A DNA stretch of 64,000 bases from Candidatus Hydrogenedentota bacterium (GTDB taxonomy: Bacteria; Hydrogenedentota; Hydrogenedentia; Hydrogenedentales; JAEUWI01), in the NCBI GenBank assembly GCA_019637335.1, contig JAHBVV010000004.1:144471-208470 (forward strand), written 5' to 3'. Position numbers and translations under genes: made by a program. The notes beneath the pieces were generated by a model. The model saw nothing but the letters and a program-made list of their open reading frames with translations, was not told the origin of the DNA and made no database searches. The stretch's first letter is position 1. The number at the start of each line of letters is the position of its first letter. Below, piece after piece: positions 26,971 to 47,743 of this stretch.

Positions 26971-27849
26971 CTACGCGGGATCCGACCGGGGTGGCTGGTG
27001 CGCGGCGACCATCTGCTCCAGCGCGGCCCATCCCTGGCGTTGTTGGGGGGTCAGGGTTGCCCCGCTACCCGCGCGCAGCCGGTGGTCGACGGCGCGCAGC
27101 CAGCGGCGGGTGGCCCGGGGCAACGCAACGCGTTCATTGACGACCAGCCCGGTCACCTGCTGTTGCTGGTGGCGCCGCCGGATGCGGAGCTTCTTCTTCT
27201 GGTGCAGTTTGTAGCCGCCCTCCTCCGCCACAATCCGCTTGGTGTGGTAGAGGATAGCCTGGATGTCGTTGTGGCGGTCCTCCGCGAGCGAAAAGGTCAG
27301 ATCGTCGGCGTAGCGGGTATACACCGCGCCATGCTTCCGCGCGAGGCCGTCCAGGCGCGCGTCGAGTCGGTAATTCACGGCGTTGCTGAGCGCGGGGCTC
27401 GTCGGCGCGCCCTGGGGGAGGCCGCCTTCGTGGGTGCAGATCCGGGCCAGCAATTTGGCCGCCGCGCGGTTCCAGCCCATCCGCTGGAGATAGCGCCGGA
27501 CGCGCTTTGCATCGGTACTGCCGAAGAAATCGCGGATGTCCATCCGGATGACGGCGGCGCGTCCCGCGTGGCAGGCCGCGTTGCTGGCGATCGAATAGCC
27601 CGGGCGAAATCCGGTGACGCACGGGTGCACCGGGAGACGCTTGAGGAGGCGCTGATAGATCTGGCGCTGCGCGGCCTTCAGTTCGGGATCGGGCGCGCTG
27701 ATCGTTCGGGTCCCGCCGCCGCGCTTGGGCAGGGTAAAGGTGTGGTAGGCGACCTTCACCGCCTCCAGATCGGCGAGGGGCAGGCCAATGCGTTCGGCCA
27801 GTTCCCCGGGGGCGCGCCCGCCGCCGGTCAGCCAGGACCAGAATGCCAT
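26971..27849 (-). CDS. Retron-type reverse transcriptase
   Basis: A 292-residue reverse transcriptase. The active site is YADD (residues 180-183), with the first catalytic Asp at D104 ('IRMDIRDFF'). The 'GLPQGAPTSPALSN' block is at 143-156. Two retron-specific regions are present: NAxxH (N90-H94, 'NAACH') and VTG (V232-G234, 'VTGLVVN'). There is no maturase or fused effector domain. ATG 27849 with GGGAG about 10 nt upstream is preferred over 27912, because the longer frame would translate the ncRNA terminator. The ncRNA lies directly upstream on the same strand. Retron RTs copy part of the ncRNA into a branched RNA-DNA hybrid (msDNA), usually in phage defence. Confidence 0.93.
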   Translation of the reverse strand: MAFWSWLTGGGRAPGELAERIGLPLADLEAVKVAYHTFTLPKRGGGTRTISAPDPELKAAQRQIYQRLLKRLPVHPCVTGFRPGYSIASNAACHAGRAAVIRMDIRDFFGSTDAKRVRRYLQRMGWNRAAAKLLARICTHEGGLPQGAPTSPALSNAVNYRLDARLDGLARKHGAVYTRYADDLTFSLAEDRHNDIQAILYHTKRIVAEEGGYKLHQKKKLRIRRRHQQQQVTGLVVNERVALPRATRRWLRAVDHRLRAGSGATLTPQQRQGWAALEQMVAAHQPPRSDPA

Positions 27850-27878: not shown

Positions 27879-27910
27879 GAAAAGGCGGCGCCGGCCGAAG
27901 CCGGCGCCGC
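27879..27910 (-). terminator. Strong intrinsic terminator between retron ncRNA and RT gene
   Basis: On the minus strand an 11-bp perfect stem (GCGGCGCCGGC and its complement) with a TTCG tetraloop is followed by CTTTTC. It begins at the base where the a2 segment of the ncRNA ends and lies 30 bp before the RT start codon. Confidence 0.88.
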
Positions 27911-28022
27911 ACTTGCCTTGCTTACCATGCGATGGTAACACGGACTCTTTCATCGGGCCAGGTGGCCCGGTTGACGAAACATCAACCCACGCCCTGCATT
28001 TGGGCGCCGCCAAGGCAAGCGC
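27909..28022 (-). ncRNA. Predicted retron msr-msd ncRNA
   Basis: About 114 nt. The 5' end GCGCTTGCCTTG (28022-28011) pairs with CAAGGCAAGTGC-type sequence at 27920-27909, giving a 12-bp a1/a2 helix with one G-U pair. Between them lie four hairpins: CGCCC/GGGCG; GGTTGA/TCAACC with loop TGTTTCG; CGGGCCA/TGGCCCG; and TTACCA/TGGTAA with loop TCGCA. The TGTTTCG loop is like the GTTTCG-loop hairpin of the E. coli Ec86 msr, from memory. The position immediately before the RT, the closing helix and a promoter whose start point falls at the a1 end make this a strong candidate. The RNA is short, so the msDNA would be short too. Confidence 0.8.
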
Positions 28023-28027
28023 CCTCA

Positions 28028-28056
28028 AGTATAAGTGGGTGGATCGCTGGCGTCAA
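28028..28056 (-). promoter_or_regulatory. Consensus promoter of the retron ncRNA
   Basis: Read on the minus strand, TTGACG (28056-28051), 17 bp, TATACT (28033-28028). The expected transcription start, six or seven bases downstream, is 28021-28022, exactly where the a1 segment of the ncRNA begins. Confidence 0.85.
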
Positions 28057-28073: not shown

Positions 28074-28451
28074 TCACTGGGTCGCCCCGAGCTGCTGTAG
28101 CACTTGCGCGACTTCTGTCTTACCAAGCTCCTGGGCGTATTTCAGCGGTGTCCTGCGCGAGGTGTCCGTCATCTCGATAAATGCGCCCTGCTGCACCATC
28201 AGCACCACAATGTCGACGTTTCCGCCCTTTACGGCGGCGTGCAACGGCGTCATGCCCTCGTGGTTGATCAGGTTGTGGTCCCAGTCACCCGCCGCGATGA
28301 AGTATTGCACGGCTTCCAGGTCGCCGGCGGCGGCGGCCTGATAGATATCGTCCATTGGCTGGTAAACCGCCGGAGCGCTTTTTTCGTTCAGATTATTGCA
28401 CCCCGCGGCCACGGCGGCCAGTACGATTACCCACGTCCAACGCGTTTTCAT
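28074..28451 (-). CDS. Ankyrin-repeat lipoprotein
   Basis: A 125-residue secreted protein. The start 'MKTRWTWVIVLAAVAAGC' is a lipoprotein signal with Cys18 as the lipidated residue. The remainder holds about three ankyrin repeats ('DDIYQAAAAGDLEAVQYFIAAG', 'MTPLHAAVKGGNVDIVVLMV', 'RTPLKYAQELGKTEVAQVL'). Ankyrin repeats mediate protein contacts. GGAGG lies 5 nt before the ATG. It is directly upstream of the retron on the same strand, but its export signal makes a role as retron effector unlikely. Confidence 0.85.
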   Translation of the reverse strand: MKTRWTWVIVLAAVAAGCNNLNEKSAPAVYQPMDDIYQAAAAGDLEAVQYFIAAGDWDHNLINHEGMTPLHAAVKGGNVDIVVLMVQQGAFIEMTDTSRRTPLKYAQELGKTEVAQVLQQLGATQ

Positions 28452-28514
28452 TGCGCCTCCAGTTCCCTGAGCCAAGCTCGGCCCGGCATCCCCGCGGGGA
28501 GCCGCACTTCGGTG

Positions 28515-28550
28515 AAAAAAACGGGCGCGCGCCCAGCCCGGGCGCGCGCC
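28515..28550 (-). terminator. Intrinsic terminator of the pseudopilin gene
   Basis: On the minus strand an 11-bp stem GGCGCGCGCCC with its complement and a 5-nt loop is followed by CG and seven T residues. It lies about 45 bp beyond the stop at 28594. Confidence 0.88.
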
Positions 28551-47499: not shown

Positions 47500-47690
47500 C
47501 CCGCAACAACTTTCCCGCGAATTGTTGCAAAACCCCCGTTGCGGGTCAGATATTCTGGCTTCCGGATCGGCCTACACGCCGCGCCTTCCCCTCCTTGCGG
47601 AAAGTGGCTATTGCGGCGTTCGTCCCCGGTTACAGCAGCGCGACTGCGACGGATTCACACCGTCTTCCCTGCGCCCGCACGGGACCGGCC
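47500..47690 (-). promoter_or_regulatory. Cobalamin (adenosylcobalamin-type) riboswitch with expression platform
   Basis: On the minus strand the conserved core reads AGGGAAGACGGTGTGAATCC, then CGTCGCAG (47660-47644). This is followed by 'GCTGCTGTAACCGGGGACGA', 'GCCACTTTCC', 'GGGGAAGGCGCGGCG' and the B12 box 'AGCCAGAATATCTGAC' (47560-47545), in the order of the classical B12 riboswitch. After the box CCCGCAAC (47545-47538) can pair with GTTGCGGG (47507-47500), while GCAACAA (47530 side) can pair with TTGTTGC (47509 side). These helices exclude each other. The riboswitch leads the surface-protein gene starting at 47329. Confidence 0.9.
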
Positions 47691-47714
47691 GCACAGGGGC
47701 GACCGGCAAGGGCG

Positions 47715-47743
47715 AGTATACGGGCGCCCGCGCGGCATGTCAA
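47715..47743 (-). promoter_or_regulatory. Consensus promoter for the riboswitch transcript
   Basis: On the minus strand TTGACA (47743-47738), 17 bp, TATACT (47720-47715). The start point near 47708 is about 20 nt before the riboswitch core, giving a leader of roughly 380 nt. Confidence 0.9.

What the first reader, a model, noticed from the sequence alone, without database searches (positions are those of the whole stretch)
27879..27910. Strong terminator between the retron ncRNA and its RT gene
An 11-bp GC stem with TTCG loop and U-tract starts right after the a2 segment and 30 bp before the RT start. In described retrons ncRNA and RT are usually co-transcribed. Here the RT would be made only by read-through, giving much RNA and little RT, or a switch if the a1/a2 pairing or the RT affects the terminator hairpin.
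Basis: partly seen in the sequence, partly recalled or inferred. Interest (0 to 1): 0.6.

Follow-up and report, generated by a model that had tools for sequence, protein, structure and literature searches.

The report
Retron RNA gene with own terminator
In a family of retrons (bacterial elements that make small DNAs from an RNA template) found in Planctomycetota and their relatives, the template RNA has its own start and stop signals and the reverse transcriptase gene lies just past the stop, so the cell probably makes much template and little enzyme; this layout is absent from 58 of 59 other retron loci examined.

Summary
On the minus strand, an 11-bp G+C stem with a TTCG loop and a CTTTTC tail (27910-27880) follows the retron a2 segment directly and ends about 30 nt before the RT start codon (27849). 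The stem is very strong; the U-tract is short (4 U).

Relatives decide the matter. A covariance model finds the same ncRNA beside the RT in all 53 members of one RT clade (Planctomycetota, Hydrogenedentota, Verrucomicrobiota) and in none of 59 other retron loci. A hairpin sits directly after a2 in all 23 hand-annotated members, with at least 4 T in the next 10 nt in 22 (3.6 expected). A terminator-like site lies upstream of the RT in 15/21 family loci versus 1/59 other retrons. A promoter precedes a1; none is detectable between stem and RT.

Best reading: promoter-ncRNA-terminator-RT, with the RT made by read-through, as in type III toxin-antitoxin and AbiF loci. An RNA-only switch is not supported: the terminator arms have no competing pairing in 22 of 23. 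U-tracts are weak in G+C-rich members, including this one, so the hairpin may also protect the 3' end. No effector gene is conserved; RT N-termini look membrane-binding. No transcript data exist.

The parts
28028..28056 (-). Promoter-like site TTGACG-17-TATACT; -10 ends 7 nt before the annotated a1, so the start site falls at about 28021, the first bases of a1
   Evidence: the same site at the same spacing stands before a1 in most relatives (median chance fraction 0.013)
28011..28022 (-). a1 segment (GCGCTTGCCTTG) pairing with a2
   Evidence: fold; helix 1 covaries in 55 distinct sequences, 94% of cells paired
27909..28022 (-). Retron ncRNA (msr-msd), a1 to a2, with three msr-like hairpins and a short variable msd-like hairpin (27922-27938)
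   Evidence: covariance model R1 hit 27884-28020, 127.8 bits (the window is one of the nine sequences R1 was built from); no Rfam family
27969..27987 (-). Most conserved ncRNA hairpin, GGTTGATG-TTT-CGTCAACC
   Evidence: helix 3: 99.5% of cells paired
27909..27920 (-). a2 segment (CAAGGCAAGTGC)
27885..27910 (-). Terminator hairpin, 11-bp stem with TTCG loop, -26.1 kcal/mol
   Evidence: helix 5: 96.6% of cells paired and 5 of 5 pairs changed on both sides across the family
27880..27883 (-). U-tract of four U
   Evidence: family mean T in 10 nt 5.6 against 2.2 expected
26971..27849 (-). Retron reverse transcriptase, 292 aa (NAACH, YADD, VTG motifs); read-through gene

Best explanation
This is a retron whose template RNA is a free-standing small-RNA gene. 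A sigma-70-type promoter starts transcription at a1, the roughly 120-nt msr-msd RNA folds, and an intrinsic terminator placed flush after a2 releases most polymerases. The minority that reads through transcribes the RT, whose start codon lies about 30 nt on. The result is an excess of template ncRNA over RT, set by terminator leakiness, as in type III toxin-antitoxin and AbiF loci. Shown from sequence: hairpin, U-tract, promoter position, absence of a second promoter signal, conservation over an RT clade. Inferred: that termination occurs, how efficient it is, and that the purpose is the RNA:protein ratio.
For: A hairpin directly after a2 in 23/23 curated members; T10>=4 in 22/23 against 3.6 expected. 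An automated rule on 56 ncRNA copies gives mean T10 4.4 against 2.0 after control hairpins, P 1.6e-11. Terminator-like site upstream of the RT in 15/21 family loci against 1/59 other retrons and 3.4% of random windows. The terminator stem keeps pairing through double changes. The ncRNA family coincides with one RT clade, 53/53, support 99/87. Promoter before a1 at fixed spacing, none between stem and RT, median gap 35 nt. In L100 two tandem ncRNAs each have their own promoter-like site and hairpin; in L103 each has a hairpin. Precedent: the C. difficile AbiF ncRNA RCd22 has a terminator with a four-U stretch before the gene and measured read-through (PMC12373285).
Against: The U-tract is weak in the window (4 U) and weak or missing in several G+C-rich relatives (L007, L087, L106, L107); T content falls with G+C (rho -0.69). 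No transcript data. In the 23 curated loci the stem ends were placed by hand, which could inflate the T counts slightly (the automated count does not depend on this).
Confidence: 0.75

Rival explanations
1. The hairpin is mainly a structural 3' cap or RT-recognition element of the ncRNA, stacking on the a1/a2 helix and protecting the 3' end; termination is secondary, especially in G+C-rich hosts.
For: The hairpin stays where the U-tract is poor (L007, L087, L106, L107) and abuts a2 with almost no gap.
Against: Stem and loop sequence are not conserved; only pairing is. T enrichment after the stem persists even in members with G+C of 60% or more (P 2e-4).
Confidence: 0.15
2. Conditional attenuator: RT (or another factor) binding to the ncRNA opens or stabilises the terminator, so RT autoregulates its own read-through.
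For: The a1/a2 helix is flush with the terminator stem, so a protein on a1/a2 could touch it.
Against: No RNA-only competing structure in 22 of 23 loci; hairpin probability near 1 up to the terminator. A protein-dependent switch was not testable.
Confidence: 0.08
3. Ordinary coincidence: a chance G+C-rich hairpin in a G+C-rich intergenic gap.
For: The region is 66% G+C; the tail is short.
Against: Searches exclude chance at family level.
Confidence: 0.02

Closest known systems
Retrons as described (Simon et al. 2019, PMC6868368)
   Same: Structured ncRNA with a1/a2 upstream of a retron RT with YADD and, in most members, VTG and NAxxH; same strand
   Different: Described as one polycistronic cassette; here a terminator divides ncRNA and RT, and no effector gene is conserved nearby
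Type III toxin-antitoxin (ToxIN) and AbiF/RCd22 loci (PMC12373285)
   Same: Promoter - ncRNA - Rho-independent terminator - protein gene reached by read-through; RNA kept in excess
   Different: Protein here is a reverse transcriptase, not an endoribonuclease or AbiF toxin; the RNA is a retron msr-msd, not a repeat array
PADLOC RT_XIII (best-scoring profile, 287 bits)
   Same: RT sequence similarity
   Different: Profile is 469 aa, this RT 292 aa; no conserved neighbour genes that could be its accessory proteins

Membership tests
Retron | Retron-type RT motifs (YxDD, NAxxH, VTG) | tested here: met
   YADD 53/53, VTG followed by L or I 47/53, N[AG]xxH 44/53; all three in the window
Retron | Adjacent msr-msd ncRNA with paired a1/a2 | tested here: met
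   Model R1 and covariation, 53/53 clade members
Retron | Produces branched msDNA | not testable with these tools
   needs the bench
Tripartite (effector-bearing) retron | Effector protein encoded with ncRNA and RT | tested here: not met
   all-against-all of flanking ORFs: no family-wide neighbour; flanks 1.5-3 kb only, so a distant effector is not excluded. Lone-RT retrons without an obvious effector are also reported (PMC12548924), so this does not exclude it from retrons as such
Intrinsic (Rho-independent) terminator | G+C-rich hairpin followed at once by a U-tract | tested here: met
   window: 11 bp + CTTTTC; family: T10>=4 in 22/23; weak in some G+C-rich members
Intrinsic (Rho-independent) terminator | Causes transcript 3' ends | not testable with these tools
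   no transcript data
Transcription attenuator / riboswitch-like switch | Mutually exclusive antiterminator pairing | tested here: not met
Type III toxin-antitoxin | Promoter-RNA-terminator-gene order | tested here: met
Type III toxin-antitoxin | Repeat-array antitoxin RNA and ToxN-like nuclease | tested here: not met
   single structured ncRNA; the protein is RVT_1
Retron type XIII | Type XIII accessory genes next to the RT | tested here: inconclusive
   the RT profile is the best hit, but no shared neighbour was found; the accessory proteins of the type are known to me only from memory

The most novel reading that the evidence does not exclude
A distinct retron lineage of the Planctomycetota-Verrucomicrobiota-Hydrogenedentota group without a separate effector: the membrane-bound RT is itself the harmful part, and terminator-enforced excess of ncRNA (or its msDNA) keeps it inactive, like a type III antitoxin RNA.
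Probability: 0.12. Interest if true: 0.8.

Novelty: new variant of a known kind. Interest (0 to 1): 0.55.

Why it matters
Retrons are drawn as one transcript. A lineage that keeps the template RNA as a separate, terminated sRNA gene suggests that the RNA:RT ratio is under selection, gives a natural design for producing template in excess (useful for retron-based DNA production), and links retrons in expression logic to RNA-protein toxin-antitoxin systems. It also defines an ncRNA family with no Rfam match and an RT clade with no conserved effector and membrane-binding-like N-termini, whose function is open.

Tried and rejected
(1) RNA-only switch between a1/a2 and the terminator: rejected, since terminator arms have weak alternative pairing (medians -3.1 and -1.7 kcal/mol against -21.6 for the terminator; one exception, L013) and hairpin probability is near 1. 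L014 is the one full-length fold in which the hairpin is displaced, not in the terminated length. (2) A separate RT promoter after the stem: best matches are at chance level (median 0.60 of random intervals as good). (3) A conserved effector neighbour: none; only three Hydrogenedentota share a downstream gene. (4) Phage carriage: the viral collection gives only distant RTs, best 37% identity. (5) Rfam: no family at gathering score in the region, only chance-level hits. (6) Automated stem calling picked wrong helices in a few loci (L009, L010, L100, L103); these were left in, which makes that test conservative. (8) The Mestre 2020 classification paper was not held, so whether this clade has a number there is unknown. 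(9) Literature searches for retron with terminator or read-through found nothing that describes such a retron.

Full report
What is there. The retron lies on the minus strand. Reading 5' to 3': a promoter-like TTGACG-17-TATACT at 28056-28028, a1 at 28022-28011, three short hairpins, a short variable hairpin (27938-27922), a2 at 27920-27909, then the stem GCGGCGCCGGC-TTCG-GCCGGCGCCGC at 27910-27885 with tail CTTTTC, and the RT gene from ATG 27849 to its stop at 26971. The RT has NAACH, YADD and VTG; Pfam gives RVT_1; the best PADLOC profile is RT_XIII, 287 bits. The stem is -26.1 kcal/mol (z -4.8), while the U-tract has four U, too short for the simple scan. In 340 kb around it (64% G+C), strong hairpins after genes are rare (26 of 207 genes) and only 7 have at least four T in the next ten bases, so by these measures this is one of the better terminators of its neighbourhood.

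Relatives. A genome scan and two phylum searches gave the same kind of locus in Planctomycetota (29 of 392 genomes with an RT match at E 1e-55), Hydrogenedentota (7 of 68) and one Verrucomicrobiota MAG. A covariance model built from nine ncRNAs finds the ncRNA next to the RT in every RT of one clade (53 of 53; the single other RT carried along, L122, has none and falls outside the clade) and in none of 59 other retron loci. In Hydrogenedentota the ncRNA occurs once per genome and with the RT; the only exception is a decayed relic in a sister genome without the RT (L148). The structure is supported by covariation: 96.7% of cells paired, 28 of 33 pairs with changes on both sides, against about 34-49% paired when partners are slid; this alignment was fitted to the model structure, so it leans toward it.

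The terminator is a family trait. In all 23 curated loci a hairpin of -12 to -34 kcal/mol begins within a few bases of a2, and 22 have at least four T in the next ten bases where 3.6 are expected. With an automatic rule on 56 ncRNA copies the mean is 4.4 T against 2.0 after other strong hairpins in the same loci. Its stem keeps pairing while its sequence changes (helix 5). Within 400 nt upstream of the RT match, a hairpin with a T-rich tail occurs in 15 of 21 family loci, 1 of 59 other retrons and 3.4% of random windows. The tail weakens as G+C rises (rho -0.69), and in several G+C-rich members it is nearly gone, although the hairpin stays. Loci L100 and L103 carry two tandem ncRNAs, each followed by a hairpin; in L100 each copy also has its own promoter-like site, so the hairpin belongs to the RNA module.

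How it most likely works. The promoter sits at a fixed distance so that transcription should start at a1. Between stem and RT start (median 35 nt) no promoter signal exceeds chance. Hence most transcripts should end as a complete ncRNA, and the RT is made by read-through. This is inferred; no transcript was measured. The same order is established for type III toxin-antitoxin loci and for AbiF/RCd22 of C. difficile, where a terminator with a four-U stretch lowers read-through into the protein gene and both short and long transcripts were mapped (PMC12373285). The switch idea was tested as far as sequence allows: the arms have no competing partner of comparable strength in 22 of 23 loci and the hairpin forms with probability near 1 in the transcript that ends at the terminator. 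A protein-dependent effect stays open.

What else marks the family. No neighbour gene is shared across the loci, so no effector could be named within 1.5-3 kb. The RT N-terminus is either a hydrophobic segment (18 of 53 above a simple threshold) or, in many of the rest, a short leader of the type MGLFDWLK-LLG, which suggests membrane contact; this is inference from sequence. The family was not found in viral contigs.

Verdict. The finding is right about the feature and about the read-through layout, unsupported about an RNA switch, and larger than stated: it is the characteristic layout of a whole retron lineage. I rate it a new variant of a known kind. Whether the Mestre 2020 classification already contains this clade could not be checked.

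Noticed in passing
family RT proteins, e.g. window 27849-27800 (minus), L004, L010, L013, L017, L019, L020, L113: RT N-termini are either transmembrane-like segments (18 of 53) or, in many others, a short leader (MGLFDWLK...), suggesting a membrane-bound retron RT.
   Followed up: partly
L100 (2780-2925 and 2580-2707, minus) and L103 (1094-1233 and 1260-1396): Two tandem, diverged ncRNAs in front of one RT, each with its own hairpin and a different msd: one RT may serve two templates.
   Followed up: partly
L148 about 1480-1600: Decayed ncRNA (promoter remnant and two msr hairpins, no a2 or terminator) in a same-genus genome without the RT: a retron relic.
   Followed up: partly
family loci with G+C of 60% or more: The terminator hairpin persists while its U-tract fades with rising G+C, so the stem may have a second role.
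   Followed up: partly
window 28524-28550 (minus): Textbook terminator (12-bp stem, seven T) after the DUF1559/pilin-like gene, showing that this genome uses U-tract terminators.
   Followed up: no
window 28074-28475 (minus): Small ankyrin-repeat protein with a lipoprotein-like start, ending just upstream of the retron promoter; not conserved with the retron.
   Followed up: partly
window 47527-47722 (minus): Cobalamin riboswitch, 93 bits.
   Followed up: no
L087, L088, L002 downstream of the RT: Three Hydrogenedentota loci share a downstream ORF of about 140-155 aa (start MTHQEEISIHTSGHGDMHDIT in L088).
   Followed up: no
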